Below are positions 40,401 through 64,000 of a DNA stretch of 64,000 nt, one piece after another; within the stretch, counting starts at the first letter, position 1, and the number at the start of each line of letters is the position of its first letter. Origin of the DNA: Stenotrophomonas maltophilia. Its GTDB lineage: Bacteria > Pseudomonadota > Gammaproteobacteria > Xanthomonadales > Xanthomonadaceae. The stretch covers positions 412,358 through 476,357 of the forward strand of contig FOZF01000001.1 of NCBI GenBank assembly GCA_900113425.1, in the 5' to 3' direction. The position numbers were made by a program, and so were the translations under genes. Under the pieces are notes generated by a model that saw nothing but the letters and a program-made list of their open reading frames with translations, was not told the origin of the DNA and did not search any database.

Positions 40401-43400
40401 CTGCGGGCCGGTATTGCCGGTGGCATCGGTGGCGGTCGCCACGATCACCGTCCCGTCCGGCAGCGGCGTGCCGGGAGTGAAGCTCCAGTTGCCACTGCCA
40501 TCGGCGGTGACCTGGCCGATCGGATTGCCGCTGCCGTCAGTCAGGATGACCGTGCTGCCAGCTTCGGCAGTACCACTGACGGTGGTGCCGTTGCTTGGAT
40601 AGATGACCGGCGCCGGCGGCGCACTGGCATCGACAGAGACGGTAGCCGGCGGACTGGTATTGCCAGCCGCGTCCACCGCCACGGCCGTGACGACGGTGCC
40701 ATCCGGCAGCGGCGTGGCCGGCGTGTAGCTCCAGTTGCCGCTGCCATCGACGGTGACCTCCGCGATCAGGCCACCGTTGCCGTCAGTGAGGATGATCTTG
40801 CTGTTGGGCTCGGCGGTACCGCTGACCGTGTTGCCGTTGCTGGGATTCAGCACCGGCGTCGCCGGTGGCAGCGCGTCCACGGTGATGCTGGTCGCGCCGC
40901 TGGTATTGCCAGAGGCATCGGTGGCGGTCGCGCTGACGACGCTGCCATCGGGCAGCGGCGTAGCGAGCGGGAACGACCAGTTGCCGTTGCTGTCGACCGG
41001 GGCCTGACCGAAGGGATTACCGCTGCCATCAATCAACGTGACGACACTGCCCGGCTCGGCCGTGCCACTGAGGGTGATGCCATTGCTCGGGTTGACCACG
41101 GGTGCGGCAGGTGCAACGGCATCGACCGTGATCGACGAAGGCGCACTGGTGTTGCCGGTGGCATCGGTGGCCGTGGCGTTGATCACGGTGCCATCGGGAA
41201 GCGGCGTCGCCGGAGTGAAGATCCAGTCGCCAGAGCCATCGGCGGTGACCTGCGCAATGAGATTGCCATTGCCATCGGTGAGCGTCACCGTGCTTCCCGG
41301 CTCGGCGGTGCCCAGGATCAGGGTGCCATTGCTGACGTCGAGCATGGGCGCCGCCGGCGCCTGCGAGTCGATGGTGACGCTGCTGCCGACGCTGGCATTG
41401 CCGGAGCCATCCACTGCCACGGCGTTGACCACCGTGCCGTTGGGCAGGGGCGTAGCGGGCGTGTAGCTCCAGTTGCCGCTGCCATCGACCGTTACGCTGG
41501 CAATCGGATCACCATTGCCATCGGTGAGGATCACCGTGCTGCCGGGCTCGGCGGTGCCACTGACTGCGCTGCCGTTGCTCAGATTCAGCACAGGCGCGGC
41601 CGGTGGCACCGCATCCACCGTGGTGCCGCCCTGCCCGCCGGTGTTGCCTGCCGCGTCGGTGGCGGTGGCATTGATCACGGTGCCGTCCGGCAGTGGCGTG
41701 GCCGGGGTGAAGCTCCAGTTGCCATTGCCGTCGGTGGTGGTCTGGCCTATCGGAGTGCCGCTGCCGTCAGTCAGCGTCACGGTACTGCCGGGCTCGGCGG
41801 TACCGCTGATGCTCGTGCCGTTGCTGGGGAGCACGACCGGGGCGGCCGGAGCGACCGCGTCAACGATGATGCTGGCGCCGGGGCCGGTGTTGCCGGTGGC
41901 GTCCGTGGCACTGGCGTTGACCACGGTGCCGTTCGGAAGCGGCGTGGCCGGGGTGAAGCTCCAGTCACCGTTGCCGTCGGCGGTGACCTGCCCGATCGGA
42001 TTACCGTTGCCATCGGTCAACGTGACCGTGCTGCCGGGCTCGGCGGTTCCGCTGAGCGCGGTGCCGTTGCTGGCCTCGAGTACGGGCGCGGCAGGCGGCT
42101 GCGAATCCACGGTGACCGTTGCCGGCGGGCTGCTGTTGCCTGCGGCATCCTCGGCAACCACCGTGACCACCGTGCCATCGGGCAGCGGCGTGCCGGGGGT
42201 GTAGCTCCAGTTGCCGCTGCCATCGACGGCGACTTCCGCAATCGGATTGCCGTTGCCGTCGGTCAGCACCACCGTGCTTCCGGGCTCGGCGGTGCCCGTG
42301 AGCGTGCCACCATTGCTGGGCTGCACGGTCGGCGTGGACGGCGCGACTGCATCGACCGTGGTGCTGCCCTGGCCGCTGGTGTTGCCGGCCGGATCAGTTG
42401 CGGTGGCATTCACCACCGTGCCGTCCGGCAACGGCGTGCCCGGGGTGAAACTCCAGTGGCCATCGCCATCGGTGGTGACCTGGCCGATCGGGTTGCCATT
42501 GCCGTCGGTGAGGGTCACCGTGCTCCCGGCCTCGGCGGTACCACTGATCGCCGTGCCGTTGCTTGGATCGATGACCGGTGCGGCAGGCGCAACGCCATCG
42601 ATGGTGATCGACGTGGCGGGGCTGGTATTGCCGGCCGTATTCTGGGCCACGGCAGTGACCACGGTTCCATCAGCAAGCGCCGCAGGCGGCGTGAAGCTCC
42701 AGTTGCCGCTCGCATCCGCCACCGTCTGGCCGATCGGATTGCCATCGCCATCCGTAAGCAGGATGGTCAGGCCCGCGCCCGCCGTTCCGGAAATCACACT
42801 GCCATTGCTGGCATTCACCAGTGGCGCGTCGGGATAGTCGGGCGCCTGCACCGTGACCGGTGGACTGCTGTTGCCGGCCGGATCGGTCACCACCACGCTG
42901 ATCGTCTCGCCTTGGGTCAGCGGTGGGTCCAGTGGCACCGTGAACTGGCCGTCGCCGCCGATCACCACGGTGGCATCGGGCTGGCCATCGCCATCGGTAT
43001 CCACGCCCACCGTCGCTCCCGGCTCACCGCTGCCGCTGATGCTGCTGCCGTCGTCAGCCACCACCACGTTGCTGGCCGCTGCAGGCGGTGTGGTATCGGG
43101 AGCCGTCGCCTGCCCCGGTCCGCTCACGTTGCCGGCGGCATCGACCAACGTCACGCTGACTTTCTCGCCGTTGGTCAACGGCGGCGACAGGGTGACACTG
43201 AATCGCCCATCGGCGCCCACCGTTCCGGTCGCATCAGGCTGACCGTCAGCATTGGTATCGACCCGCACCGTGGCACCGACTTCACCGCTGCCGGTAAGCG
43301 TCCGGCCGTCTGCACTGAATGCCAGCCCGGTGGGTGCGGCCGGCGGCGTGGTATCGGGTACCGGGGGATTCTGCGGTGGATTCGGCGATCCGCCACCGCC

Positions 43401-43859
43401 ACCGCCGCCGCTGTCCGCCAGCGCCACCGCTGCGCCGACCGCCGCCAGCCCGCCAAGCACCATCGCGCCGCTGATGCCACTGCCTGCGCCCGCGCCCGCT
43501 GCAGTCAGCGAGTCAAACCCAGCCAGCGTCTCCTGCGGCAGATAGCTCGCTGCCAGCGGCCCATCGCTGGCCACCGCCGGCAGATCGACGGCCACGAGCT
43601 TCTTGTCATCCACCAGGAACAGATGGCTGGGCGATTGTCCTTCAGCATAGAAGTTGACGATGCGGACGTTCTCGCCGGTTTTCAGCTGCACCACGAGATC
43701 CTGGCCGTCCTTCACGTAGCCGGCGACCTGGTCTGGATCGATGTCCAGTGCGACGTTGCTGCTCTGCTGCAGCGTCACGACATCATTGCGGACGGTGGTG
43801 GCGGCGGTATCGGAGGTGATCGATTCGCTTGCCGGGACAACCTTGACGCGGATGGCCAT
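34479..43859 (-). CDS. Giant BapA/LapA-like Ig-repeat adhesin secreted by type I system
   Basis: A 3126-residue surface adhesin. Residues 1-118 form a BapA-prefix-like domain; TAAG at 119-122 resembles a LapG processing site. A short hydrophobic stretch (VLGGLAAVGAAVALAD) and a Gly/Pro linker follow. Then come two divergent Ig-like units, about 27 near-canonical 82-residue repeats (core ADGSGNWSFTPATPLPDG) and one divergent unit. The C-terminus has RTX-like Gly/Asp repeats (GTSGNDVLSGANG, INGGDGSDLI) and a type I secretion-type tail. The ATG at 43859 has GAGGA seven bases upstream. It heads the four-gene secretion operon and is expected to promote biofilm formation; the binding partner is unknown. 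Confidence 0.93.
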   Translation of the reverse strand: MAIRVKVVPASESITSDTAATTVRNDVVTLQQSSNVALDIDPDQVAGYVKDGQDLVVQLKTGENVRIVNFYAEGQSPSHLFLVDDKKLVAVDLPAVASDGPLAASYLPQETLAGFDSLTAAGAGAGSGISGAMVLGGLAAVGAAVALADSGGGGGGGSPNPPQNPPVPDTTPPAAPTGLAFSADGRTLTGSGEVGATVRVDTNADGQPDATGTVGADGRFSVTLSPPLTNGEKVSVTLVDAAGNVSGPGQATAPDTTPPAAASNVVVADDGSSISGSGEPGATVGVDTDGDGQPDATVVIGGDGQFTVPLDPPLTQGETISVVVTDPAGNSSPPVTVQAPDYPDAPLVNASNGSVISGTAGAGLTILLTDGDGNPIGQTVADASGNWSFTPPAALADGTVVTAVAQNTAGNTSPATSITIDGVAPAAPVIDPSNGTAISGTAEAGSTVTLTDGNGNPIGQVTTDGDGHWSFTPGTPLPDGTVVNATATDPAGNTSGQGSTTVDAVAPSTPTVQPSNGGTLTGTAEPGSTVVLTDGNGNPIAEVAVDGSGNWSYTPGTPLPDGTVVTVVAEDAAGNSSPPATVTVDSQPPAAPVLEASNGTALSGTAEPGSTVTLTDGNGNPIGQVTADGNGDWSFTPATPLPNGTVVNASATDATGNTGPGASIIVDAVAPAAPVVLPSNGTSISGTAEPGSTVTLTDGSGTPIGQTTTDGNGNWSFTPATPLPDGTVINATATDAAGNTGGQGGTTVDAVPPAAPVLNLSNGSAVSGTAEPGSTVILTDGNGDPIASVTVDGSGNWSYTPATPLPNGTVVNAVAVDGSGNASVGSSVTIDSQAPAAPMLDVSNGTLILGTAEPGSTVTLTDGNGNLIAQVTADGSGDWIFTPATPLPDGTVINATATDATGNTSAPSSITVDAVAPAAPVVNPSNGITLSGTAEPGSVVTLIDGSGNPFGQAPVDSNGNWSFPLATPLPDGSVVSATATDASGNTSGATSITVDALPPATPVLNPSNGNTVSGTAEPNSKIILTDGNGGLIAEVTVDGSGNWSYTPATPLPDGTVVTAVAVDAAGNTSPPATVSVDASAPPAPVIYPSNGTTVSGTAEAGSTVILTDGSGNPIGQVTADGSGNWSFTPGTPLPDGTVIVATATDATGNTGPQAAITVDALPPPAPVVDPSNGTTITGTAEAGATVILTDGNGNPIGQTTADGSGNWSFTPATALPDGTVVNAVAQDAAGNTGPQGSTTVDAVAPPTPVVNASNGNVLTGTAEPNSTVTLTDGDGNPIGQATVDGSGNWSFSPATPLPDGTVVNVTATDAAGNTSAPASTTVDSSLPSIPLIDPSNGSVISGTADPGNTVIITDGSGNPIGQVTADGSGNWSFTPGVPLPDGTVVNVIARSPSGVDSAPAAITIDGVAPPAPVIDPSNGAEISGTAEANATIVLTDGSGTPIGQTTADGSGNWSFTPATPLPDGTVVNAIATDPAGNSSGPASITVDALAPSAPVINASNGVVISGTAEAGAIVILTDGNGNPIGQTTADGSGNWSFTPATALPDGTVITAVAQDAAGNTSGPASTTVDAVAPPAPVIDASNGSIISGTAEASATVILTDGSGNPIGQTTADGSGNWSFTPATPLPDGTVVNAIAMDPAGNSSGPASTTVDAVAPPAPVINASNGAVISGTAEAGATVVLTDGNGDPIGQTTADGSGNWSFTPGTPLPDGTVITAVAQDAAGNASGPATTTVDTVAPPAPVIDPSNGSVVSGTAEAGATVILTDGSGNPIGQTTADGAGNWSYTPATPLPNGTVITAVAQDAAGNGSGPASTTVDSVAPPAPTIDASNGSVISGTAEAGATVILTDGNGIPIGQTIADGSGNWSFTPGTPLPDGTVINALARDAAGNNSSPVSTTVDAVAPSAPTLDASNGTVITGTVEPGVKVILTDGNGDPIGEAIADGSGNWSFTPATPLPDGTVINAIAQDAAGNNSGPVSTTVDAVAPPAPVIDPSNGSVISGTAEAGATVILTDGNGDPIGQTTADGSGNWSFTPGAPLPDGTVINAVAQDAAGNTSGPATTTVDAVAPPAPVIDPSNGSVISGTAEAGATVILTDGSGNPIGQATADGSGNWSFSPATPLPDGTVINAVAQDAAGNSSGPATTTVDAVAPPAPVIDPSNGSVVSGTAEAGATVILTDGNGDPIGQAVADGSGNWSFTPGAPLPDGTVINAVAQDAAGNTSGPATTTVDAVAPPAPVIDPSNGSVISGTAEAGATVILTDGNGDPIGQAIADGSGNWSFTPGTPLPDGTVINAVAQDAAGNSSGPATTTVDAVAPPAPVIDPSNGSVIAGTAEAGATVILTDGNGDPIGQAIADGSGNWSFTPGAPLPDGTVINAIAQDAAGNNSGPATTTVDAVAPPAPVIDPSNGSVIAGTAEAGATVILTDGNGDPIGEAIADGSGNWSFSPATPLPDGTVINAIAQDAAGNNSGPATTTVDAVAPPTPVIDPSNGSVINGTAEAGATVILTDGNGDPIGQTTADGSGNWSFTPGTPLPDGTVINALAQDAAGNTSGPATTTVDAVAPPAPLLSVSADGTLLSGTAEPNSQVRIVVNGDTANPITVNVDGSGNFSLPFAPALIAGELISAVAIDLAGNTSGPATINAPDLAPPDISVPEAADTWINAAEIGDGIQVDVTVRPTMQVGQVITVRFAGQNGYEADVSHTLTAADIAAGSVTVTLTPPAGMGPFPEGASTITAEVAGGTASAPEAFTIDTVPPATPVLSLVGNLLTISAQPGTELTVTLTVGGVTATATVTADNSGLASLNLLTDLDIDFTWDQLLNAQVSVVGSDPAGNPSNVASIGIGTSIEQPVTIGNFGVDVSLNPLSPRFGFSGQTEPDSSVVIRVITPALNVELSPIQADPSGNFSLNLLSPTILSQLGLNITDILNLGAQISFNLVATDSNGNDSAAYGVTLSPNGLSLNIGQIDVNGTSGNDVLSGANGSSEHINGGDGSDLIFNVGSGDHVVAGNGDDAIQITATNFVSIDGGAGFDTLILANGIDLDYNSAGVGTLSNIERIDLGTGDSGSVLTLTAAEVAAITDGNDTLQITGESNDVLNVIGAVNTGTTQLINGVTYDVYTFGSTTLLVEDNSVQVVA
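36180..42830. repeat. About 27 tandem 246-bp repeats within the adhesin gene
   Basis: The period is 246 bp (82 codons). Copies between about 36.2 and 38.0 kb are almost identical at DNA level, while those from about 39.5 to 42.8 kb differ much more. The pattern suggests recent duplication or gene conversion toward the C-terminal end, and copy number may vary between strains or be mis-assembled. Confidence 0.93.
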
Positions 43860-44453
43860 GGGACATTCCTCTCTTCTACAGGCGCACCGCCATGCGCGCA
43901 ACGACGTCATGCACAGCGATCACGCTGGCACGGCGGCACGGAATGGATGTTTTCGCGCGAAGCCACCGCCAACAGGCAAAACGCCTGCTGCCGGATACGT
44001 GCTTCGGATTCTTCAGGCGACCGGATGCAGCGATGCGACGCGCCCGGTCGTGGTGCGATGCAGCGCTACAGCGTGGGCGCGAGATGCAGATGCATGAACG
44101 ACAATCCTCTTGTCTGGAATCGCCGACGCGCGTTCAGCGACGCGGTCAGGGCCGTCGGACGTCGGCCATTGCTCCCCCGTCCGCTGCGGGAGGGTATACA
44201 CCGCGTCGAAGTGAACGTTCCATGCAGATCGCGTGCATGCGGCCTTCATCGCGCAGGTCGTTGAAAGCTCTGTGACGCATCTGGCACGTCATTACGCTGG
44301 AACACCCGTTTTCACGGGGAAAAAATGCGATCCCAATTGACGCTTCGGGCTCGTTTTGCGCAGCGCAAAACGAACGAAGGAACGGTCGGGAGTGCCCGCA
44401 GCAACGCGTGGCGACTCCCCCGTTCCCCCTCATCACTACAACGATGACTGCGT
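43860..44453. other. 594-bp non-coding region upstream of the adhesin operon
   Basis: No gene is supported. It must contain the adhesin promoter (minus strand) and the end of the amidohydrolase transcript. Visible elements are a 23-bp perfect palindrome (44351-44373), CATGCA-N7-TGCATG at 44221-44239, and an AT-rich patch with six consecutive A at about 44320-44326. No confident -35/-10 pair was found. Confidence 0.6.
44351..44373. promoter_or_regulatory. 23-bp perfect palindrome with 11-bp arms
   Basis: TCGTTTTGCGC and GCGCAAAACGA flank a single A. No T-tract follows on either strand, and the one-base centre is too small for a normal terminator loop. A dimeric regulator site is therefore as likely as a terminator for the amidohydrolase gene. 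It lies about 490 bp upstream of the adhesin start. Confidence 0.5.
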
Positions 44454-52872: not shown

Positions 52873-54570
52873 TCAGCCGGGCACGGCCTCTCGCGTATCC
52901 GCCGTCTCCTCGACCTTGCCGGGCGTGTACTTGGTCGCGCCGAAGTACAGCACCCGCCATTGGCTCAGGTTGCCGATGAACCAGTGCGCCACCGAGTCAT
53001 GACCGTACCCGTCGAAGAAGGTCTCCACCTCCGGCGGCAGCAGGGTCGTATTGTCCCAGGATTCCAGAGTGACCCGCTCGGCCATGGTCAGCGTTCTACC
53101 CCGCTCCCGGCGCCGTCGCAGGCTGACGATCTTGTCCAGCAGCGTGTCGTTCTCCTTCTCCAGCCCCCGGCGCTGCTTGCGCACCGCAGAGAGCTCATCA
53201 TCACGCGCCTTCAGCTCGTCTGACACCCGGTTCCATTCGGCGGTCTTCTCCGCATTGCCCTGGTCGGCCAGATGCAGGTTGTCGTTGTCCCAGGGCGAGG
53301 GCAGCTGCGACTGCCGTCGGCGCAGGGTGCGCACCTGTTCCCGCAGGGCCTCTTCGCGTGCAGCAAGCCGCTGCATCGACGGCAACTGGTCGCCGCGTGC
53401 CACGCGCACGCGCAGCCAGCGATACAGCAGCTCCATATGCGATGCCTGCACGTCCTCCATCCGCCCGCGCTTGACCCGTACCGCCTGCAGATAGGCATTG
53501 AACACCGCCTGCAGTTCCGGATCCTGCTTGTCGAACTCGGCTTTCACGAAGGGCTCCAGTTCGCTCACGGGGTTGAGCAGCACCCCGCCGGCCTGCGCCA
53601 TGTCGTACATCTCGTTCAAGGAGAACCGCGCGATGCTGTTCCGGCGCCCCTGGTGCTGGGGATCATAGCCACCGCCCACGTCCGAGTGCACACCCGGGAA
53701 CCATATTTCCACCGTGTTGGCGGGGTACTGGGCATGCTCGCGGGTGGAATCCAGCGGGAACTGGCCACGCAGCTCATGGGCGGCGGTCATGTGCACCGAC
53801 TGCTCCACGATCTCCGGGACGGCCATGCCTTCGGCCCAGCCGGTATGTCCATTGCGGTAGTTCACCGCCGCCGCCGTCAGGCTGGGCCACACCGAGCACA
53901 CCGTGTCGAACACGCCCATGAATCCGATCCGCAGCGGAATACGCTCGCGGTACAGCCAGGTGCCATCGGCCTGGCGTCGGCAGCGCGCGGCCAGATCGCG
54001 GGCGAACGCGCGTGCCGAAGCCGCTCCGCGCGAAAAGCCCAATACCGACACGCTGACCACCAGGATGCGCATCGGCTCGGGCTGGCTGTCTATCAGCTCG
54101 TCCAGCGCCTGCAGCGCGAAGTCGATGCGCTCGCGCCCGCCCTTGCCGATGGACAGGCCCAGCAGCCCCCCCGAATCACCGACCTCCGGGCACGGTGTCC
54201 CTACGCCGGACAGGTACTGCCGTTTTATGTTCCGTGTGTCGTCCTTGTGCGCGATGAACAAGCGGGCGATGTTCGACAATGCGCGCTCATCTTCGGCCTT
54301 GTTCAGCTCCTCATCGCGATTGTTGCCGGTGCCATCGAAGAATACGGCCAGGTGCAGGCTCTGCGTGCATCCCGTAGTGGCCGCTTCCTTGTCGGGCACG
54401 GTGCCACACATCGCCTCCTGGCGACGGCGGCGCTCGGCATCGCTCAACGGACGCGTGCCGCGGGCCAGTCGCGCGGTGCGTGCAGTGCCCTCTGCCTGGG
54501 CGACCGGATCCGGGGTGCCCGGTTCAAGATCCACCTGCCCGGGAATCGCGGTCGGATCAATACTGGTCAT
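52873..54570 (-). CDS. T6SS phospholipase effector, Tle1 type (DUF2235)
   Basis: A 565-residue protein. The DUF2235/Tle1 hydrolase core begins with LHLAVFFDGTGNN (about 73-84). The nucleophile elbow is LGFSRGAA (Ser180), Asp222 sits in GVFDTV, and His295 in FPGVHSDVGGGY, giving a complete catalytic triad. The C-terminal part (about 400-500) is Arg/Glu-rich and probably coiled coil. Tle1 effectors degrade membrane phospholipids in rival cells after T6SS delivery. It overlaps the DUF3304 gene by 14 bases and ends the vgrG cassette. No MIX motif was seen. Confidence 0.9.
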   Translation of the reverse strand: MTSIDPTAIPGQVDLEPGTPDPVAQAEGTARTARLARGTRPLSDAERRRRQEAMCGTVPDKEAATTGCTQSLHLAVFFDGTGNNRDEELNKAEDERALSNIARLFIAHKDDTRNIKRQYLSGVGTPCPEVGDSGGLLGLSIGKGGRERIDFALQALDELIDSQPEPMRILVVSVSVLGFSRGAASARAFARDLAARCRRQADGTWLYRERIPLRIGFMGVFDTVCSVWPSLTAAAVNYRNGHTGWAEGMAVPEIVEQSVHMTAAHELRGQFPLDSTREHAQYPANTVEIWFPGVHSDVGGGYDPQHQGRRNSIARFSLNEMYDMAQAGGVLLNPVSELEPFVKAEFDKQDPELQAVFNAYLQAVRVKRGRMEDVQASHMELLYRWLRVRVARGDQLPSMQRLAAREEALREQVRTLRRRQSQLPSPWDNDNLHLADQGNAEKTAEWNRVSDELKARDDELSAVRKQRRGLEKENDTLLDKIVSLRRRRERGRTLTMAERVTLESWDNTTLLPPEVETFFDGYGHDSVAHWFIGNLSQWRVLYFGATKYTPGKVEETADTREAVPG

Positions 54571-55073: not shown

Positions 55074-55937
55074 TCAGTCCCAGCTTTCTTCAAGCGGCCA
55101 CACTTCGTCACCGATATCGGCAGCGCTGCGCCGCCCCGCCGCGAAGTCCTGCAGGCGAAGACGCCATGCGGGATCCTCGCCAAGATCGACACCGGCCAGC
55201 AGCGCCCAGGTCGACACCATCACCAGCCGTCGGCTGTCCTCGATGCCGACGTCCGCGGCCGTGGCCACCACCCGTCGGAAGAAGGTATACCAGCGCGCCC
55301 GGGGAAGCCGCGCCAGCAGCTCCGGGTCGGAAAGCTGGAAGTGATCGATCAGCGTGTAGGGGTAGCTGGCATCGATCAGGGCGTGCCGCTGAGGCGCCTC
55401 CAGTACCCAGGGAGGATCGTGCGGATCCTGCACGCTGTCCTGCAGTTCCAGGTACGCCCATTTCAGATCGTGGCGCAGGTACCACCAGCGCTCTCCCAGC
55501 GCCAGGAAGGCCCGGCACTGTGCTGCGTCCAGCACCTGCACCCACCACGGCAGCACCCGGGCGTCGAAGAAGCGGGCCAGGAACAGCTTGCCGTTCGGGT
55601 AGCTGGCGTCCAGCCGTCGCTGCAGCCGCTGCTGCAGCTCTTCCGCAGGCAGTGCCGTGTCGATCAGGCTGAGCAGGCCCGGAGAACGCGCGTACGACGC
55701 CGCACGCTGCAGGAAGCGGTCAAGCTCCAGGCCACGCGGCAGGCGTGCGAGGAACACGCTGGCGTCATCCGTGCCATCGGCCAGCAGGCCGTCGAACAGG
55801 GGCAGCGGCGCCCAGGGCAGCGCGCGCAGCAGCTGCAGGGGCTGCTCGCACTGCGCGCCGTCGAGCAGAACGTAACGCTGGGTGCCCTCATCCAGCGGCG
55901 GTGGCGAGAACGATGGGAACTGCCAGTCGTTGGCCAC
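55074..55937 (-). CDS. T6SS adaptor, DUF4123 (Tap/Tec-like)
   Basis: A 287-residue protein of the DUF4123 family. N-terminal block: RYVLLDGAQCEQ; centre: DRFLQRAASYARSPGLLSLIDTALPAEELQQRL, of which several residues are conserved in the family; WVQVLDAAQCRAFLA is followed by the conserved aromatic segment. DUF4123 proteins load effectors onto their VgrG. I chose the GTG at 55937 because GGGAGG lies six bases before it. The GTG falls right after the vgrG stop, so translation is coupled. Confidence 0.88.
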   Translation of the reverse strand: MANDWQFPSFSPPPLDEGTQRYVLLDGAQCEQPLQLLRALPWAPLPLFDGLLADGTDDASVFLARLPRGLELDRFLQRAASYARSPGLLSLIDTALPAEELQQRLQRRLDASYPNGKLFLARFFDARVLPWWVQVLDAAQCRAFLALGERWWYLRHDLKWAYLELQDSVQDPHDPPWVLEAPQRHALIDASYPYTLIDHFQLSDPELLARLPRARWYTFFRRVVATAADVGIEDSRRLVMVSTWALLAGVDLGEDPAWRLRLQDFAAGRRSAADIGDEVWPLEESWD

Positions 55938-55939
55938 GC

Positions 55940-58714
55940 TCAGCCTCCCTTCGGTGTCAGCGGGGCTGCACGCTGTGCGGCCAGCAGCAGGCATTCCTTG
56001 CAGACCGACTGCGGGAAGACCGGCAACGGGTAACGACCGCGATCGCCGGGCAGGAACGACTTGCGTCCGGCGTGCACGCTGATCCTGCCGGGCGCGTTGA
56101 ACACGATGTTGCCGCCACTGAGGGTGATGCTGGCCCCGCCTGCGGTAGCCACCTGCACCGTCCGGCCCGCAGCCACCTCCACGGCGCCCTGTGCGCTCGT
56201 GCCCCGCAGCGACTGCCGCGACTGCACGCGCACCTCGTCCTGCTGCGCCTTGACGTCCAGCACCTGTTCGCCGCTGGCCAGGGTCAGCGCCGGCTCGCCC
56301 GGATCAGCCCCCTCCAGCGTTGCGGCCAGTACACCGATGGCCTGCCGTCCATGCCAGCGCGCCTGCCCCATCACCACGGCCTCGCCGTGCTGGCCACTGC
56401 CCAGTGCCAGTGTCTCGCCCGGCGCCCAGAGCAGCCCCTGTCCGGCCACCATCAGCGCACCATCAGGTGCAGCCAGGCCCAGCAGCGCATCGCCGGTATG
56501 TGGAACGCGGCCCTCGCCGGCATCACCGCTGCGTTCCGGCGCCGAGCCGGCCGCATCCTGCAACGCACTACCGGGCACCGTGCTGCGTACGCTGGCCAGC
56601 AGCACCGGCAGCGGAGACTGCGAACCGTCCAAACGCGAGCGCTGCGGCGATTGCACGCCGACATGCGCGGCCGGCCGCACTGTCAGATGCGTACCCGCCG
56701 CCGTAGTTTGGCTGCGGGCCAACGTGGACAGCTGCTGCAGCAGCGCAGCGGGCTGTGCCGCCGCACCCGCCGGTTCGGCGCTGCGGCGGGCATAGGCACT
56801 CAACCAGAGCCCGCCTTGCCCGCGCACGCTGCCCCAGGCGTCGCTGCGCAACTCGAATCCACTGCCGCGGAAGCTGCCTCGATGGTTGTCCGCCTGATGG
56901 CGCAGATGCCCCAGCGTCAATGCCGAAGCCTGCTGGCTGCTGGCCAGCTGGGCCCGCAGCTGCTGGTCGCTGTCGTCGAACAGCAGCCGGTTCCAGCCGC
57001 CCCCCTGCCATTCCCGTGATTGCACGCCCCACAGCGCACCGGCGTTGCGGTGTGCCTGCTCTCCGGCCGCCGCCGCGTGCCAGGCAGGCGCTTGGCCGCC
57101 TCCGAGGTTGGCCTGGGCACTGCCGGTGCCATCCCTCGCCTGTGCGTACATGGACGTATCGGCTTCAGCGCTGGCGCCCGCCGGTGTCGGCGCGACGCCG
57201 GCTTCGCCGCGCCCGTTGTACAGCGCGCCCAGCACCAGCGGCCGGTCGATGTCGCCCTCGAGGAAGCCCACCAGGACTTCCTGGCCGATGCGGGGCAGGA
57301 ACTGGCTGCCCACGCCCGGCCCCGCATAGCGCTGCGCGACGCGCAGCCACGCGCTGTCCGTGCTGCCCTCTTCCTGCTGGAAGTGGAACCGCACGCGGAT
57401 CCGTCCCAGTGCATCGGCGTGCAGCTCGGCGCCGTCGGCGCCCTGCGCCGCCACCACGACCGCTGTCTGGTAGCCCGGCGCCAGCGGCCGCGGATTGCGT
57501 CGAGCGCCGGTGCCGTCCCATAGCGTCGGACGCCAACGCCGGTCGCGGGGAAGCGCGATGAATGTCTGTGCGTAGCCCTGTGTCTGGGCAGCCACCTGCA
57601 GCGTGTCCGCGGTCGCGGCGGCATCGTCCATCGCTGCCAGCGCCTGGCGCAGGTCCACCGGCAGGTTGTTGACCCCGGCGTGCTCGACGTCCACCAGCAG
57701 CAGTTCGGTCGGCACCGCCCCCGGCGTTCCGCTCAATGACCAGACCTGGCCGGCATCACCGCTGCGCACGCTGCCACGACCGTGCCATTGCAGTGCCTGC
57801 GCCTCCAGTGCCTCGGCGACCAGCCGTGCGTGGTGCTGCAGCTCGGCCGCGTCGGCAAAGGCATGCGCGCCAACCGGGTCGTAGTCCTCGCGCCGCGCCT
57901 GCCCGCTGCCCTGCACCGGCAACTGGCCGGCCAGCGAGCGCGCGCTGCGATAGTCGCTGCTGTGCAGCTGCACGTGCGTGCTCTGCAGACGGCGCAGCTG
58001 CCCCAGCTGCTGCACACCATCGCTCTGCTCGGTGCCATCGGCGCGATGGAAGCGGATCCCGCCCGCCGACTGCGACACAGCGGCTTCCGGCAAGAGGGTC
58101 GAATCGGCGAACACCAGCACGCCGTGGCCCACCGGGGCATCGGGAACCTCCTCCACGCACCAGCCCAGCCCCTCTTCAGCGAGCAGACGCTGCACGAACG
58201 CCAGGTCGGACTCGCGATACTGCACGCAGTAGCTGCGTTGGCGGGACGCCGCCAGCACGCTGTCAACCTCTTCGCTCCAACGCCACTGCGCATGCGGCGC
58301 ATGTGACTGGAACACCGCATCCACGATCGCCCGCACGGTCTGCTCCTGGAACACGCGGCTACGTCGGGCCTGGTCGAGCCACCACGTCCAGTCGCGCAGG
58401 GTCACGCGGTAGCGCGCCAGCCCACCGTCCGACTGCAGGCACTCGGCCGCGGCGATCACACCATGGCGCAGCCAATCCTCGCCATTGGCCTGCCGCACAT
58501 GCAGGCAGGCGGGTTGCCCCGGCCACTCAGCGAGCGGCAATGCAGCATCCATCGCGAGCAGATCGATCTGCAGCTGCCTGCCCTGCGACAGCGCATCATG
58601 TCCACGCCAGCGGTCGACGACGACCTCGGGCGTGCCTGGCAGATCCAACCGGTACAGGCGGCTTCCAGCGTCGAGGCCCGCTGCCTGCACCATGAGGTTG
58701 CGAATCGCTTCCAT
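55940..58714 (-). CDS. vgrG: VgrG spike protein of the type VI secretion system
   Basis: A 924-residue spike protein. The gp27-like part (about 1-380) has RVTLRDWTWWLDQARRSRVFQ and CVQYRESDLAFVQRLLAEEGL. The gp5-like OB region holds GRIRVRFHF, followed by SQFLPRIGQEVLVGFLEGDIDRP. A DUF2345 domain covers roughly 660-860 and has LTLASGEQVLDVKAQQDEV. It ends with Cys-containing LPVFPQSVCKEC and no enzymatic extension. It should deliver the Tle1-type effector via the DUF4123 adaptor encoded next. No other T6SS structural gene is in the window. Confidence 0.93.
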   Translation of the reverse strand: MEAIRNLMVQAAGLDAGSRLYRLDLPGTPEVVVDRWRGHDALSQGRQLQIDLLAMDAALPLAEWPGQPACLHVRQANGEDWLRHGVIAAAECLQSDGGLARYRVTLRDWTWWLDQARRSRVFQEQTVRAIVDAVFQSHAPHAQWRWSEEVDSVLAASRQRSYCVQYRESDLAFVQRLLAEEGLGWCVEEVPDAPVGHGVLVFADSTLLPEAAVSQSAGGIRFHRADGTEQSDGVQQLGQLRRLQSTHVQLHSSDYRSARSLAGQLPVQGSGQARREDYDPVGAHAFADAAELQHHARLVAEALEAQALQWHGRGSVRSGDAGQVWSLSGTPGAVPTELLLVDVEHAGVNNLPVDLRQALAAMDDAAATADTLQVAAQTQGYAQTFIALPRDRRWRPTLWDGTGARRNPRPLAPGYQTAVVVAAQGADGAELHADALGRIRVRFHFQQEEGSTDSAWLRVAQRYAGPGVGSQFLPRIGQEVLVGFLEGDIDRPLVLGALYNGRGEAGVAPTPAGASAEADTSMYAQARDGTGSAQANLGGGQAPAWHAAAAGEQAHRNAGALWGVQSREWQGGGWNRLLFDDSDQQLRAQLASSQQASALTLGHLRHQADNHRGSFRGSGFELRSDAWGSVRGQGGLWLSAYARRSAEPAGAAAQPAALLQQLSTLARSQTTAAGTHLTVRPAAHVGVQSPQRSRLDGSQSPLPVLLASVRSTVPGSALQDAAGSAPERSGDAGEGRVPHTGDALLGLAAPDGALMVAGQGLLWAPGETLALGSGQHGEAVVMGQARWHGRQAIGVLAATLEGADPGEPALTLASGEQVLDVKAQQDEVRVQSRQSLRGTSAQGAVEVAAGRTVQVATAGGASITLSGGNIVFNAPGRISVHAGRKSFLPGDRGRYPLPVFPQSVCKECLLLAAQRAAPLTPKGG

Positions 58715-58836: not shown

Positions 58837-59466
58837 TCAATAGGTTCCGTAGGAGACTTCCACCACCACCGGCTTGCCCCCGTCCTGCAGTGGCTGCAGG
58901 GTGAAGCGGTCCAGTGCGCTGCTGTCGTCGCCCAGCTGCGTGCTGCGGAACTGCAGGCGATAGGAAGATGCACCGGCCTGCACGCTGCCGTCGGGCATCA
59001 ACCGTGCGTCGGCCGGCAGCAGCAATCCTCCAAGATCGCTGTAGGCCTCCGGCGCTTCGTTGAAGCCATAGTCCACCAGCTCGTCCGTGCGACGCATTTC
59101 GTACACCCGGGTCGGCCACGGGCGCTGGCCGCTGTGGCTGTTGCGCAGATCGGCCACCCATTGTTCCGGCAGCTGGTAGACCTTGCGCAGTGCGCCATCA
59201 TCGAGCTCGGCACTGGCCACCTGCAGGCAGCAGACCAGCCGCTTGCTCTCCCGGTCATAGATGCTGAAGCGTGCATCGCGTGCGACCGCCACCGGCAGCA
59301 GGGCGAACGGCACGTCACGCAGCGCCGGTTCGGCGCCATCACGCGAATCAAGGTTGCGCCAGCCACCGAAAACGGGTTCGGCTGCCAGCGCCGGCGGTGC
59401 CACCAGGCACAGTGCCACCGCAAGCCCACCGGTCACGCGGCCGATCCAGTTCTGCATGTCGTTCAT
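58837..59466 (-). CDS. Exported protein of unknown function in the T6SS island
   Basis: A 209-residue protein with a signal peptide (GGLAVALCLVAPPALAA). The mature part has a Cys pair (LVCCLQVA) and no family I can name. It sits between the peptidoglycan effector unit and vgrG, on the same strand. By position it may be a second immunity protein or an accessory factor. Start ATGs at 59466 and 59457 are both possible. Confidence 0.72.
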   Translation of the reverse strand: MNDMQNWIGRVTGGLAVALCLVAPPALAAEPVFGGWRNLDSRDGAEPALRDVPFALLPVAVARDARFSIYDRESKRLVCCLQVASAELDDGALRKVYQLPEQWVADLRNSHSGQRPWPTRVYEMRRTDELVDYGFNEAPEAYSDLGGLLLPADARLMPDGSVQAGASSYRLQFRSTQLGDDSSALDRFTLQPLQDGGKPVVVEVSYGTY

Positions 59467-59583
59467 CCGTCGATGGCCGGCGGCCAATCAGTTGCGTGAG
59501 GATGCCATGAAGGTGAGGCGTCCGCCACGTCGGGCAGCCCGGCTCGTTCAGCCGGGCCCGGCGATCGCGGGGGAACGCGGCCG

Positions 59584-60183
59584 CTACTGCATGTACTGCG
59601 TGGTGTGGCCGGTGAATCTGACACCATCGAATCCGAAGCAGAAGCGGCCCTCTTCGAATGCCCGGTAGACGAGCAGTGCGCCGTTCACGCAGAACGTGTC
59701 GCTCTCAACGGATGTCTCCACCGTGCCATAGGTACGCGCGCCATCCTTGCCCACCAACGGGCCCGAGAACGCATCGATGGGCAACGGATACACGGTGCCG
59801 TCGCGGCTGTCGATCAGCACGATGGAGCGCTGGAAGTACTCCTTGCGCTCATCCAGCTGGGCCAGGATGTAATGCCGGTTGAAGTTCGGCACCTGGGTAA
59901 GGATGGCCTGGTCGATCTGCGCGCGATGCTGCGCATCACAGAAGTCCACCGGGCTGTATTCGTACGCGCAGCCGGAGTGTGGATAGCTCATCACAACGCC
60001 TGCGTAGGGCGCGTTGTGGGTCGCAGCAGGTGCAGGTGCGGCTGCGGGCGCCGTGACGGGGGCCGTTGCAACCGGCGCGGGCGCCGCGCTGGATGCGCCG
60101 GACCCGGTACAGGCTACCGACAGGCACAGCAGGCCCGACAAGGCGGCCACGAGTACGCTCCTGGCAATCTTCACACGCGTCAC
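59584..60183 (-). CDS. Putative periplasmic immunity lipoprotein for the upstream effector
   Basis: A 199-residue protein. A signal ends at LSVAC (lipobox-like), and a long Ala/Pro linker (about 30-55) leads to a small domain with four Cys (PHSGCAYEYSPVDFCD; ESDTFCVNG; EGRFCFGFDG). The GTG start overlaps the effector stop (GTGA), so both are made together. Placement, small size and periplasmic location are what an immunity protein against a cell-wall effector would need. No family was recognised. Confidence 0.72.
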   Translation of the reverse strand: MTRVKIARSVLVAALSGLLCLSVACTGSGASSAAPAPVATAPVTAPAAAPAPAATHNAPYAGVVMSYPHSGCAYEYSPVDFCDAQHRAQIDQAILTQVPNFNRHYILAQLDERKEYFQRSIVLIDSRDGTVYPLPIDAFSGPLVGKDGARTYGTVETSVESDTFCVNGALLVYRAFEEGRFCFGFDGVRFTGHTTQYMQ

Positions 60184-63100
60184 TTCCGACTCTCCGCAAT
60201 TTCCATCAGTAGTTCCCTCAATCCACGTGTCGAACCAGCGTTGGCACTGTTGGCCGCCCCTTCATGGTAGGACAGGTTGCCATCGGACACGTTGTCCTTC
60301 TTGGTCTTGTAGCCCTTGGGTGCCGCAATCGATGCCCATTCCTTGGCGGCCGCGTACTGTGCATCGTCAACGCTGCCGGTGCCATTGCGCACGAAGTTCG
60401 CCAGCGCGCCACCGCCCGCCTTGCCCAGCAGGTACTCGGCGAACACCCGCTCCTGCAGCTCCGCATCATATTTTTCCGCACCGGTCAGGCCCATCGCCTC
60501 CTTGGCTGCACGCAGCGTCTTGATGATGGTCTGGTATTTGCCGGTGGCGAACATGCGGTTGCGATCGGTGCCGTCCAGCGCATCGGTCGCGAGGATCTGA
60601 TCGACGGTCTTGCCGGTCACCGTGCCCGCCGGTGCATGCACGAAACTGAAACCGACCTTGTCACCCGGCACATTCTTAGTGCCGGTGTTGTACGACTCAT
60701 AGCCACCCTCACCGTGGGCAATGATGTCGCCCAGCCGGCGGATGAAGTCGCCGCCGCTGACCTTGATGCCCAGCCCCATGAAGTTGCTGATCATCGCCAG
60801 CGGGTGGAAATGGAACATCTCAAGCGAGGTCGGGAAGTCCTTCACGCCCTTGACCGCGTCCCACCATTGCAGGTTGCGGATGCGGACCTTCTCGCCAGCC
60901 CACTCATTGCCCTGCGCACGCAGCATCATGGCGTCCAGTTCATCCCACTTCTGCATGCCGCCGCCCCACTCGCTTTCGTAGCGCACGATCAGCCTCTGCA
61001 GGTAACGGGCCAGCAATGGGTTCTGCTGCGCCTGTTTCAGTTCTGCCGGGCTCAGGTCGCCATCTTTGTTGGCGTCCAGCAACTGGTAGATCTTGCGGTG
61101 CAGCGAGCTGCCTCTTACGCGGTCGGCGCGCATCTTGTGATCGGCCTTTTCGGCAGGCTGCGAGCGCGCCATCTGGAACAGCTTCCACGCCATCAGGTCC
61201 ATCGGCGTCAGCTGCCCTTCCTCGACATATTCAAAGCAGGGCCACGCCCACGGGGACTCCCATCGCGTCAACGGGTGGTCCTTCTGGCAAACCCAGCCGC
61301 TCGCCTGGTCGGTGGAAACCCACCACCACCGGATACCTTTGCTGTCGGTTGCCACCGACTTGCTTTCCAGCGCATCCAGCTCGACCCGCGCCATCACACG
61401 GGCCAGTTTGCTCGGCGCGGTGGTCAGGTTGTCAATCCGCAGGGGATAGGCGTTCCATGCCGGGACATCGGACGGCAATGCGATTCCCGCCGACGCCGTG
61501 GCCAGGCGCGCACGCTCGGCCCACAGCTCGTCGGCAAGCTGGACCAGCACCTCGCGATCAGGCCAGCTTCCGCCAGTCTTGGCATCCTGGGTGCGCTCGC
61601 CCGTGCTGCTGATGTACCACCCGGTGAACTGCTCGCCACCGGCATAGCGCCGGGTCTTCTCGTTGAATTTTCCCAACGCCTTGCGTGAGGCCTGGCGGAC
61701 GACGCACTTGTGCACTTTCGCCCACGGTCCCTTCGGGCTGTCAGCAGCCACCACCACCATCGAACCCGCCGCGAGCATGGCGTCGCTGGCCACCGGCGTG
61801 ACCAGCTTCACCCCCACCTCCAGCACCAGCATGTTGCGCTCGTTCTCGGGCCGCGTGGCCGCATACGCACGGCTGCGCCCGATGAAACCGGGCACATCAC
61901 CGCCGCTGAACACCTCCAGATGCAGCATGCTGCGCATACCCGGCGAAGGCGATGCGCGCGCCACACCAAAGGTCTGGTATTCGCCGATCTGGCCGATGAT
62001 GTCGCCAGCCTTCACCGGGAACGGCTTGTCCAGCACCACGACCTGATCCACCGGATCGGGCTTGTCAAACACCGCTTCCATGCGCGACAGATAAACCCAG
62101 CCCGTTTCTGCTCCAGGCTTGACCTGCCCATCGACAGCTTCAGCGGCAATGATCTCGCCTTCCAGCAGCTCACCGATGTGGCCCCATACTCCCTTGCCCA
62201 CTGCCTTGGTTTCGGTGAAGCGCACGCGAGCGCCCTGCGCCAGCATGCCCAGCAGCTTTCCATTCGGTTCGGACCGGATGTTCAGGCCCTTGCGCCCCTT
62301 GATGGCGGGTGCCACTGGTGCGCTCGCCGCCGTCGCGCTGGCAGCTGCAGGGGCCGTCGTTGCAGCCGTGGCACCCGGTGTCGGCAAGCTGCCGTACGGC
62401 ACCCGCTGTGGCGTCGCATGCTCCGCAGCCGCCTCCAGCCCGAAACCACGCTGCCCGATGCCGGCCTGGTCACCGACGGGCGACTGGCCCCAGCCACCGC
62501 CCAGTGGCGACTGGCCCAGGCCAAAGCCGCGGTCGACGGAAAACGGAGAGCGCGGCAAAGCGAACGGATCGGCCGCCGGCGCTTCCTGCGGAGGCGGCGG
62601 GGGCGGCGGCACCTTCTGCGTGTCTTCGGCAGCAGAGGCGGTTACCCGGTAGGTGCTGTCGCCCTTCCAGTACTTCGCACGCGGAATCTTGTCATCCTGC
62701 CGATAGCCACGCCAATCCATCAGGTGCATGTAGAGACTGAACAGCACCAGGGTTTCAGGCTTGCTTTCCGTCCGCTCCGGCGTGGCGGCGACCTTGGGCA
62801 CTTCGGTTTTTATGCCCTTCTTCTTGTCCTTGGCCGCCTCGACGGCCGCCGCCTTCTGCGCCTCCTTGGCGTCCGCAGCCGCCTTCTTGTCCTCGGCCTG
62901 CATCTTCACCGCGATCGCCGAGCGCATCTGCGCGGTGCGGGTCTGCTCCTCAAGGTCAGCCGCCTCGCTTTCAGGCTGGCAGGCTTTCAGCTGGGTGCTT
63001 TCAGGCAGCACCAGGGTGTGCCGCACCAGTGTGAAGCCGGTGGAGTACAGCGCCTTGAGCTGGTTTTCGCGGAACTGAACCGCCGGATAGGTCGAATCAA

Positions 63101-63788
63101 GCTTGTAGGCCACCACCTCGCCATCCGCGATGCAGCGCACGCCACTCTTCTCGCCCAGCTGTGTCGGGCCCTGCGCCAGCTCGTTCGCTGTCCCATCGCC
63201 GAAGTGGATGCCGCCATGCCAGAGGCTGTTGCCGCCGACCGGATAGAACCCATCTTCCGCACCGCGCATGGCATGCATGTACGCCGCCACGCTGCTCGCC
63301 GGCTCGCCGTCCTTCAGCAGGAATGGGTACCCGAACGCGCCGGACACGGCCTCTCCGTCCGGGAAATCGAAGGTCGCCGGATCAACCGTCTTGTGCAGCA
63401 CCAGCTTCCCGGACTCGGCGAACGGATGCACCTCGAAATGCAGGTGATTGCCCGAACTCACCCCGCCCGTCATCCCGACCGGCCCGAGCGGATCGCCCTT
63501 CTTGACCTTGTCCTTCACCTTCAGCGGCGACGCAGCCGACATGTGTGCATACATCGTATGCACCACCTGCCCACGGATCATGTGCTCGACGGCAATCGTG
63601 TTGCCGTAGCCGTTCATCCATCCGGTATAGATCACATGCCCGTCTGCTGCAGCGGGAATGGGGGTACCTGCCGGTGCGGCCCAGTCCTGCCCTTCGTGGC
63701 GCTTCACCGTACCCAGCGTCGGATGCTTGCGGGCCTGCGACCAGTTGCTGCTCACCCGGAACGGCGGGCCAGGGTTATACGTCGGCAT
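60180..63788 (-). CDS. Bifunctional peptidoglycan hydrolase, M23 endopeptidase plus lysozyme-like domain (likely T6SS effector)
   Basis: A 1202-residue protein without signal peptide. The N-terminal M23/LytM domain has complete zinc ligands: His31 and Asp35 (RHEGQDW) and HLH at 115-117, with His82 in YAHMS. A second, split LytM-like copy follows (HGGIHFGD at 191-198, later LFSLYMHL and MLHLEVFSG). After an Ala/Lys coiled segment and a Pro/Gly linker, an SH3-like segment has KGLNIRSEPNGKLLGML. An EF-hand (DANKDGDLSPAE, about 905-916) and a C-terminal lysozyme-like domain follow, with GEGGYESYN (Glu about 1027) and FATGKYQ. Lack of a signal and proximity to vgrG point to T6SS delivery into rival periplasm. 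Confidence 0.85.
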   Translation of the reverse strand: MPTYNPGPPFRVSSNWSQARKHPTLGTVKRHEGQDWAAPAGTPIPAAADGHVIYTGWMNGYGNTIAVEHMIRGQVVHTMYAHMSAASPLKVKDKVKKGDPLGPVGMTGGVSSGNHLHFEVHPFAESGKLVLHKTVDPATFDFPDGEAVSGAFGYPFLLKDGEPASSVAAYMHAMRGAEDGFYPVGGNSLWHGGIHFGDGTANELAQGPTQLGEKSGVRCIADGEVVAYKLDSTYPAVQFRENQLKALYSTGFTLVRHTLVLPESTQLKACQPESEAADLEEQTRTAQMRSAIAVKMQAEDKKAAADAKEAQKAAAVEAAKDKKKGIKTEVPKVAATPERTESKPETLVLFSLYMHLMDWRGYRQDDKIPRAKYWKGDSTYRVTASAAEDTQKVPPPPPPPQEAPAADPFALPRSPFSVDRGFGLGQSPLGGGWGQSPVGDQAGIGQRGFGLEAAAEHATPQRVPYGSLPTPGATAATTAPAAASATAASAPVAPAIKGRKGLNIRSEPNGKLLGMLAQGARVRFTETKAVGKGVWGHIGELLEGEIIAAEAVDGQVKPGAETGWVYLSRMEAVFDKPDPVDQVVVLDKPFPVKAGDIIGQIGEYQTFGVARASPSPGMRSMLHLEVFSGGDVPGFIGRSRAYAATRPENERNMLVLEVGVKLVTPVASDAMLAAGSMVVVAADSPKGPWAKVHKCVVRQASRKALGKFNEKTRRYAGGEQFTGWYISSTGERTQDAKTGGSWPDREVLVQLADELWAERARLATASAGIALPSDVPAWNAYPLRIDNLTTAPSKLARVMARVELDALESKSVATDSKGIRWWWVSTDQASGWVCQKDHPLTRWESPWAWPCFEYVEEGQLTPMDLMAWKLFQMARSQPAEKADHKMRADRVRGSSLHRKIYQLLDANKDGDLSPAELKQAQQNPLLARYLQRLIVRYESEWGGGMQKWDELDAMMLRAQGNEWAGEKVRIRNLQWWDAVKGVKDFPTSLEMFHFHPLAMISNFMGLGIKVSGGDFIRRLGDIIAHGEGGYESYNTGTKNVPGDKVGFSFVHAPAGTVTGKTVDQILATDALDGTDRNRMFATGKYQTIIKTLRAAKEAMGLTGAEKYDAELQERVFAEYLLGKAGGGALANFVRNGTGSVDDAQYAAAKEWASIAAPKGYKTKKDNVSDGNLSYHEGAANSANAGSTRGLRELLMEIAESRK

Positions 63789-63809: not shown

Positions 63810-64000
63810 TCAAGCCCAATCGGGCGTGCACATCAACTGCGACTTCTGCGTGTTGTCACCCTGGGGGCCCAGCTTCGGCCTTTCGCCGCGTTGGCTGCGC
63901 TCATCATCGGGAAAATCCGACCCCAACGACTTGCGCGCGCGCGCGCGCGCCTGCTCCAGCGGCAGGTCGATCAGGATGCCGATCGGGGTGGGCGCGGTTC
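63810..64000 (-). CDS. 3' end of an unrecognised gene (start outside window)
   Basis: The last 62 or so codons of a minus-strand gene, ending LMCTPDWA and a TGA at 63810-63812, 21 bp before the effector start. The visible part is charged and hydrophilic (ARARARKSLGSDFPDDERSQ). No family recognised. Being immediately upstream of the effector, it may be a chaperone, adaptor or another effector-immunity component. Confidence 0.65.
   Translation of the reverse strand, partial: TAPTPIGILIDLPLEQARARARKSLGSDFPDDERSQRGERPKLGPQGDNTQKSQLMCTPDWA
63933..63950. repeat. (GC)9 dinucleotide tract within the partial gene
   Basis: Nine GC units in a row encode an Ala-Arg alternation. Slippage by one unit would shift the frame, so the tract could switch the gene on and off. 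Confidence 0.85.

What the first reader, a model, noticed from the sequence alone, without database searches (positions are those of the whole stretch)
60180..63788. Large candidate T6SS effector combining endopeptidase and lysozyme-like domains
One 1202-residue protein carries a complete M23 zinc site at the N-terminus and a lysozyme-like domain (GEGGYESYN ... FATGKYQ) at the C-terminus. An SH3-like segment and an EF-hand lie between. Such a protein could cut both the peptide cross-links and the glycan strands of peptidoglycan. The closest concept I know is TseP of Aeromonas, an amidase plus lysozyme; this M23 plus lysozyme-like layout would be distinct. The lack of a signal peptide and a vgrG cassette 1.5 kb downstream support T6SS export; this is inference.
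Basis: partly seen in the sequence, partly recalled or inferred. Interest (0 to 1): 0.75.

Follow-up and report, generated by a model that had tools for sequence, protein, structure and literature searches.

The report
Two-bladed cell-wall-cutting T6SS effector
[quoted passage not shown] it is a new member of a known effector class, and the spike proteins encoded beside such effectors mostly end in the same three residues, which likely form the hook that carries them.

Summary
In detail: one 1202-aa ORF, a complete M23 site at the N-terminus, an inserted SH3, a phage-lysozyme-like C-terminus and no signal peptide. The EF-hand is below Pfam's cut-off. The interpretation needs correcting. M23 + lysozyme is not distinct from TseP, whose 'amidase' domain was itself superimposed on an M23 structure. 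The likely cognate VgrG lies upstream, beyond the window edge; the downstream vgrG heads another (Tle1) operon. Two lipoprotein genes flank the effector as candidate immunities; their homologues recur side by side without this effector in four related loci. New here: (1) VgrGs next to WHIX genes end in Phe-Ser-Gly in 16 of 20 cases, against 0 of 57 other VgrGs of the same genus; (2) the modelled WHIX core best matches LytM/M23 peptidases but lacks one catalytic histidine in all 258 aligned sequences; (3) in 8 of 91 same-genus genomes WHIX is split over two overlapping genes, apparently V2a and V2b of Stenotrophomonas rhizophila. Enzyme activity, secretion and immunity are inferred, not shown.

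The parts
60180..63788 (-). Subclass II WHIX ('double-blade') T6SS effector gene, 1202 aa
   Evidence: ORF; WHGGIH motif and core conservation; WHIX definition PMC12135965
63354..63788 (-). N-terminal blade: canonical M23/LytM domain, residues 1-145 (H31, D35, H82, H115, H117)
   Evidence: Pfam; PDB sequence matches to M23 peptidases; site conservation
60777..63353 (-). WHIX domain, residues 146-1004, predicted LytM-like fold with a coiled segment, a low-confidence linker and an SH3b inserted
   Evidence: model pLDDT 83.7, pTM 0.78; VIA rows
63204..63221 (-). WHxxxH signature WHGGIH, residues 190-195
62064..62291 (-). Inserted SH3b-like segment, about residues 500-575
   Evidence: SH3b rows within core-model residues 230-430; several relatives carry PF08239
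61029..61097 (-). Sub-threshold EF-hand-like loop, residues 898-920
   Evidence: E 0.04-0.057, below cut-off
60183..60776 (-). C-terminal blade: lambda-lysozyme-like domain, residues 1005-1202, invariant E1027 and GKYQ motif
   Evidence: A3 invariant columns; model; fold matches
59584..60183 (-). 199-aa lipoprotein, overlaps the effector's stop codon by 4 bases; candidate immunity to the C-terminal blade (AwiD position)
   Evidence: homologue directly downstream in 7 of 9 distinct loci where this C-terminal domain sits on a WHIX gene, and in 0 of 3 loci with an ORF matching this domain only
63810..64000 (-). 3' part of a 226-aa lipoprotein gene that continues past the window (L001:10168-10848); candidate immunity to the N-terminal M23 blade (AwiU position)
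   Evidence: no Pfam match
58837..59487 (-). 216-aa signal-peptide protein, homologous to the genes directly behind split WHIX effectors; likely an orphan immunity gene
   Evidence: 31-35% to the first such gene in the split loci, 52-64% to the second where there is one
55940..58714 (-). Second VgrG, tail ...LTPKGG, head of the neighbouring operon; probably not the cognate spike
55074..55994 (-). DUF4123 adaptor of the neighbouring vgrG operon
52873..54570 (-). Tle1-like phospholipase effector of the neighbouring vgrG operon

Best explanation
The gene encodes a subclass II WHIX protein, predicted to be a T6SS cargo effector in which an N-terminal M23 domain would cut peptide cross-links and a C-terminal lambda-lysozyme-like domain would cut the glycan strands of a rival's peptidoglycan. 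The WHIX domain between them likely loads the protein, without an adaptor, onto the C-terminal ...WRLTGFSG tail of the VgrG encoded two genes upstream; that VgrG lies just beyond the window. The lipoprotein genes on either side would each protect the producer against one blade: the upstream one against M23, the downstream one against the lysozyme-like domain. Shown directly: the gene order, the domain matches, the conserved sites, the conserved VgrG tail, and the recurrence of the two lipoprotein genes together. Inferred: secretion, catalysis, loading on this VgrG, and the pairing of each immunity with a blade.
Against: No activity, secretion or immunity was tested on this protein. The C-terminal fold match to PDB is weak by Foldseek (best E 0.61) and by profile comparison with lambda lysozyme (Prob 1.3). 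The window's W190 is not universal (170 of 258 rows; 70 have P). In the published Awe1 work the N-terminal blade was silent against Aeromonas kin, so both blades need not act on every target. Of 12 loci with a copy of this C-terminal domain, 5 lack a recognisable homologue of the downstream lipoprotein: L034 and L037 (domain on a WHIX gene) and L039, L040, L042 (ORF matching this domain only). Four of 20 WHIX-adjacent VgrGs do not end in FSG.
Confidence: 0.87

Rival explanations
1. WHIX is itself an active zinc amidase, so the protein is a three-blade enzyme (M23, WHIX/LytM, lysozyme) with a TseP-type core.
For: TsePN, probably the same domain because its required H19 and H23 are spaced like H191 and H195, is a zinc-dependent amidase in vitro and was superimposed on the M23 structure 3SLU. 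The WHIX core model matches LytM/lysostaphin best. H257 and H355 are present in 258 of 258 aligned sequences.
Against: The first His of the HxH pair (position 621) is absent in all 258 rows, and the metal-ligand position 623 is Q in 33 of 258. Awe1 WHIX alone was not toxic in the E. coli periplasm. No TseP sequence could be fetched, so the residue correspondence is by spacing only.
Confidence: 0.25
2. The M23 domain is a degenerate localisation or activator module (as in EnvC or NlpD) and only the C-terminal domain kills.
For: Several weaker NCBIfam matches, all under their cut-offs, are to activators such as EnvC and NlpD. Awe1's N-blade was inactive in kin competition.
Against: All five LytM active-site residues are intact and the best PDB sequence matches are M23 peptidase structures. 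A homologue of the upstream lipoprotein accompanies the M23 N-terminus in 4 of 4 same-genus loci that have it.
Confidence: 0.12
3. A housekeeping or phage-lysis peptidoglycan hydrolase, not a T6SS effector.
For: The C-terminal domain resembles phage lysins.
Against: No signal peptide; vgrG on both sides and the tss cluster adjacent. More than 98% of genomes with WHIX homologues hold a T6SS (PMC12135965).
Confidence: 0.02

Closest known systems
Awe1 of Aeromonas jandaei (double-blade WHIX effector, PMC12135965)
   Same: M23 in the first ~147 residues, then WHIX, then a glycan-targeting C-terminus; vgrG upstream; immunity genes on both sides; spike tail containing FSG
   Different: 862 aa against 1202; the window WHIX is longer (about 860 against 552 residues); the C-terminal domain belongs to another class (lambda-lysozyme-like against predicted glucosaminidase); Awe1 is tested, this protein is not
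TseP of Aeromonas dhakensis (PMC11893102)
   Same: N-terminal zinc site superimposed on an M23 structure, EF-hand reported, C-terminal lysozyme, carried by a VgrG
   Different: judging by its residue numbers TseP lacks the extra canonical M23 domain ahead of WHIX; a single immunity TsiP inhibits both activities, whereas here two candidate immunities flank the gene
1,200-aa NlpD/M23 protein in the vgrG2 slot of S. maltophilia S377 (PMC13055248)
   Same: length, N-terminal annotation, vgrG2 position, upstream immunity candidate
   Different: described there only as an M23 endopeptidase; WHIX, the lysozyme-like end and a downstream immunity are not mentioned in the section read
V2a and V2b of S. 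rhizophila CFBP13503 (PMC13340143)
   Same: vgrG2 operon; the L052 and L053 proteins match the published masses (50.0 and 79.9 against 50 and 79.8 kDa) and together cover the WHIX domain
   Different: two genes instead of one, split inside WHIX; other blades (lysozyme-like N-terminus; C-terminus described in the paper as a Zn-dependent DD-peptidase)
Tse4 of Acinetobacter baumannii
   Same: two peptidoglycan-cutting activities in one T6SS effector (named in the papers read)
   Different: not described as a WHIX protein in the passages read; one immunity appears to suffice (PMC12135965 discussion)

Membership tests
WHIX effectors | WHxxxH motif in the first part of a bipartite domain | tested here: met
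   WHGGIH at residues 190-195; both parts align to homologues with exchangeable peptidoglycan-hydrolase ends
WHIX effectors | T6SS in the same genome and gene beside a tube/spike component | tested here: met
   vgrG upstream and downstream; tssA, tagF, tssM adjacent
WHIX effectors | T6SS-dependent secretion mediated by WHIX and the VgrG C-terminus | not testable with these tools
   published for Awe1; here only the FSG tail is shown
WHIX subclass II / double-blade | N-terminal extension over 99 aa carrying a toxic domain, plus a C-terminal toxic domain | tested here: met
   about 145-aa M23 domain and lysozyme-fold C-terminus; toxicity itself untested
WHIX subclass II / double-blade | two cognate immunity proteins, one per blade | tested here: inconclusive
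   two flanking lipoprotein genes whose homologues recur together without this effector in 4 of 8 split loci; protection not testable
TseP family | zinc amidase N-domain and lysozyme C-domain under one immunity protein | tested here: inconclusive
   WHIX core resembles LytM, but no TseP sequence could be fetched and two immunity candidates flank this gene
Peptidase family M23 | H...xxxD...YxH...HxH metal and catalytic site in a Pfam-level domain | tested here: met
   PF01551 96.3 bits against 28.7; H31, D35, H82, H115, H117
Lambda-lysozyme-like (GH104) domain | fold and catalytic glutamate of the lambda lysozyme group | tested here: inconclusive
Peptidase family M23 (for the WHIX core) | LytM fold with the complete HxxxD / YxH / HxH site | tested here: not met

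The most novel reading that the evidence does not exclude
WHIX is a retired LytM/M23 peptidase turned into a cargo hook: its former active-site cleft, kept as a His cluster but stripped of the catalytic HxH histidine, grips the -Phe-Ser-Gly end of its own VgrG like a bound product. F-S-G at the spike tail is then the address label that predicts, from sequence alone, which VgrG carries a WHIX toxin. In several Stenotrophomonas species the hook is split across two genes (V2a and V2b) that would have to reassemble on the spike.
Probability: 0.4. Interest if true: 0.75.

Novelty: new member of a known kind. Interest (0 to 1): 0.5.

Why it matters
The protein itself adds a Stenotrophomonas member to the double-blade WHIX class, pairing M23 with a lambda-lysozyme-like blade around a longer WHIX. 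The wider point is that the authors of the WHIX paper left open how WHIX holds the spike, what the sequences between its two parts are, and whether WHIX itself acts on peptidoglycan. The FSG tail and the LytM-like core make these questions directly testable with short peptides and point mutants, and would let VgrG-cargo pairing be read from genomes. The split loci suggest that two published 'amidases' of a biocontrol bacterium may be halves of one machine.

Tried and rejected
Distinct from TseP: rejected. Downstream VgrG as the cognate spike: set aside, because it precedes DUF4123 and Tle1 genes and its tail is LTPKGG. EF-hand as a functional site: not supported in the window protein; below cut-off, and position 911 is variable. 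Relatives score higher but still under the cut-off (P0038 19.9 bits, a V2b-type protein 21 bits, against 25).

Looking for TseP itself: a class-wide search (2 of 369 genomes matched at 1e-20), a search with a Salinisphaera WHIX-GH19 protein (best 120 of 1160 matches listed) and a residue-number fingerprint over 293 proteins showed no Aeromonas sequence, so TseP residues are matched by spacing only. Phmmer of the C-terminal 306 residues against PDB gave one chance hit.

Against the split-WHIX idea: the S. rhizophila paper reports strong loss of killing for the V5V2b double mutant, and in the sections read does not report it for V5V2a, so V2b may be delivered without V2a. Against the tail code: one locus has no FS (Lysobacter L037), three end in FSD, FSE or FSV (L048, L038, L057), A. 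jandaei VgrG4 has an Arg after FSG, and the same-genus cases are mostly orthologues, so a Fisher p of 4e-11 (11 of 13 against 0 of 56) overstates independence. Closest paralogues still split cleanly: 11 of 11 WHIX-linked VgrGs at 58% or more identity to the window's upstream VgrG (itself included) end in FSG, against 0 of 12 non-WHIX paralogues at 54-61%.
Full report

The middle is a WHIX domain. Homologue searches returned proteins that share residues ~150-1005 but swap their ends. C-termini include GH19 (P0005), GH24 (P0049), GH108 (P0041) and pesticin-type (P0052) domains. N-termini are M23, NlpC/P60 (P0046, 21.9 bits against a cut-off of 23) or absent. The motif WHGGIH sits at residues 190-195. 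This is the signature of WHIX as defined by Fridman et al. (PMC12135965; abstract, sections 6, 10, 11 and 12 and passages read): a T6SS secretion domain, bipartite in sequence, whose subclass II carries a toxic domain on each side. They list 162 subclass II proteins with an N-terminal M23, and name lambda-lysozyme-like C-termini among the classes. Their Awe1 is M23-WHIX-toxin, needs two immunity proteins, and loads onto the C-terminal tail of the VgrG encoded upstream. The window protein fits the sequence features of this class that could be tested. A 1,200-aa NlpD/M23 protein in a vgrG2 slot was noted in S. maltophilia S377 (PMC13055248, section 26 and passages read). The kind is therefore known.

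Neighbourhood. The window stops 212 bases upstream of the effector's start. The genome beyond it (L001) shows a 226-aa lipoprotein gene and then a 920-aa VgrG, followed by tssA (opposite strand), an OmpA-family gene, tagF and tssM. Downstream, a 199-aa lipoprotein overlaps the effector's stop codon, followed by a 216-aa exported protein and then another vgrG with DUF4123 and Tle1 genes; lipoprotein and signal-peptide calls are by eye. The order vgrG - lipoprotein - effector - lipoprotein is the Awe1 order. Homologues of the upstream lipoprotein sit between vgrG and effector in 4 of 4 same-genus loci with an M23 N-terminus (G000, G476, G473, G003; the last at 32% identity) and were found at that position in 0 of 8 split loci. 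Homologues of the downstream lipoprotein lie directly behind the effector in 7 of 9 distinct loci whose WHIX gene carries this C-terminal domain (missing in L034 and L037); three further loci with an ORF matching this domain only (L039, L040, L042) have none, so 7 of 12 in all. In 4 of 8 loci with split effectors, homologues of both lipoproteins lie side by side behind the effector's own likely immunity gene, as retained antidotes would; a fifth keeps only the downstream one. The 216-aa protein is related to the genes directly behind the split effectors (31-35%, and 52-64% to a second copy in four of them) and is probably an orphan immunity.

VgrG tails. The upstream VgrG ends in ...SSWRLTGFSG. 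I read the C-termini of every VgrG that BLAST found next to a WHIX gene in the fetched loci (20). In the window's genus, 11 of 13 end in FSG, one in FSD (L048) and one fragment beside a weakly matching WHIX gene in FSV (L057). Outside it, Burkholderia L034, Xanthomonas L035, Pseudomonas L036, Paraburkholderia L041 and the Salinisphaera-type L059 end in FSG, Atopomonas L038 in FSE and Lysobacter L037 in neither. In all, 16 of 20 end in FSG and 19 of 20 have F-S before the last residue. As control, 60 non-WHIX VgrG loci of the same 12 genomes were fetched; 57 gave a complete C-terminus (56 distinct), and none ends in FSG or in F-S-any. In PMC12135965 the VgrG4 residues predicted to contact the WHIX cavity include Val689-Ser690-Phe691-Ser692-Gly693-Arg694, and loss of the last 14 residues abolished binding and delivery. 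I found no paper stating this tail as a general label (searches; open-licence library only; of the papers listed I looked into PMC12135965, PMC11925235 and PMC13323088, the last two by passages).

Split WHIX. In 8 of 91 genomes of the genus the domain is divided between two genes; 4 have it in one gene and 2 more match only weakly. In the two loci mapped against the query, the first gene covers residues up to about 405 (with H191, H195, H257 and H355) and the second begins at the SH3, about residue 494 (with position 623 and the rest). In L052 the two genes overlap by 8 bases, and all eight pairs sit behind an FSG-tailed VgrG. In L052 and L053 the masses are 50.0 and 79.9 kDa, and 97.1 and 97.5 kDa for the VgrG, against V2a 50, V2b 79.8 and VgrG2 97 kDa in S. 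rhizophila CFBP13503 (PMC13340143; abstract, sections 5, 6, 9, 10 and 12 and passages read). The paper's double-mutant data do not require this, and partly speak against an obligate pair. A search for 'split effector' with type VI secretion found no paper.

Verdict. The protein is a new member of the WHIX double-blade effectors. The VgrG tail label, the LytM-like nature of WHIX and its natural split are the parts worth following.

Noticed in passing
L049-L056 (eight same-genus genomes): WHIX domain split between two genes, apparently the V2a/V2b pair of S. rhizophila; all eight upstream VgrGs end in RIIGFSG.
   Followed up: partly
L037:7959-11749: Lysobacter changpingensis also has a split WHIX, with a lipoprotein-like gene between the halves and the window-type lysozyme domain on the second half; its VgrG tail lacks FSG.
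   Followed up: no
L051, L054, L055, L056 (downstream of the split effectors): Side-by-side homologues of both candidate immunity genes without the M23-lysozyme effector: perhaps a retained two-gene antidote cassette.
   Followed up: partly
L041:940-11370: Paraburkholderia dinghuensis carries two WHIX genes in tandem behind one FSG-tailed VgrG, with different C-termini; the second reads as two overlapping ORFs.
   Followed up: no
P0071 (854 aa): A protein with a signal-peptide-like N-terminus and, by eye, an M23-like segment that carries a 38%-identical copy of the C-terminal lysozyme-like domain without a BLAST match to WHIX, so the domain may also travel outside WHIX effectors.
   Followed up: no
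window 34479-43910 (-) and 31059-33599 (-): 3143-aa giant protein with 30 Big_6 repeat matches and a BapA-type N-terminus, likely an adhesin, with an ABC transporter gene nearby that may be its type I exporter.
   Followed up: no
L123, L140, L148: A third group of close VgrG paralogues ends in ...TPGVLV, which may be another cargo-specific tail.
   Followed up: no
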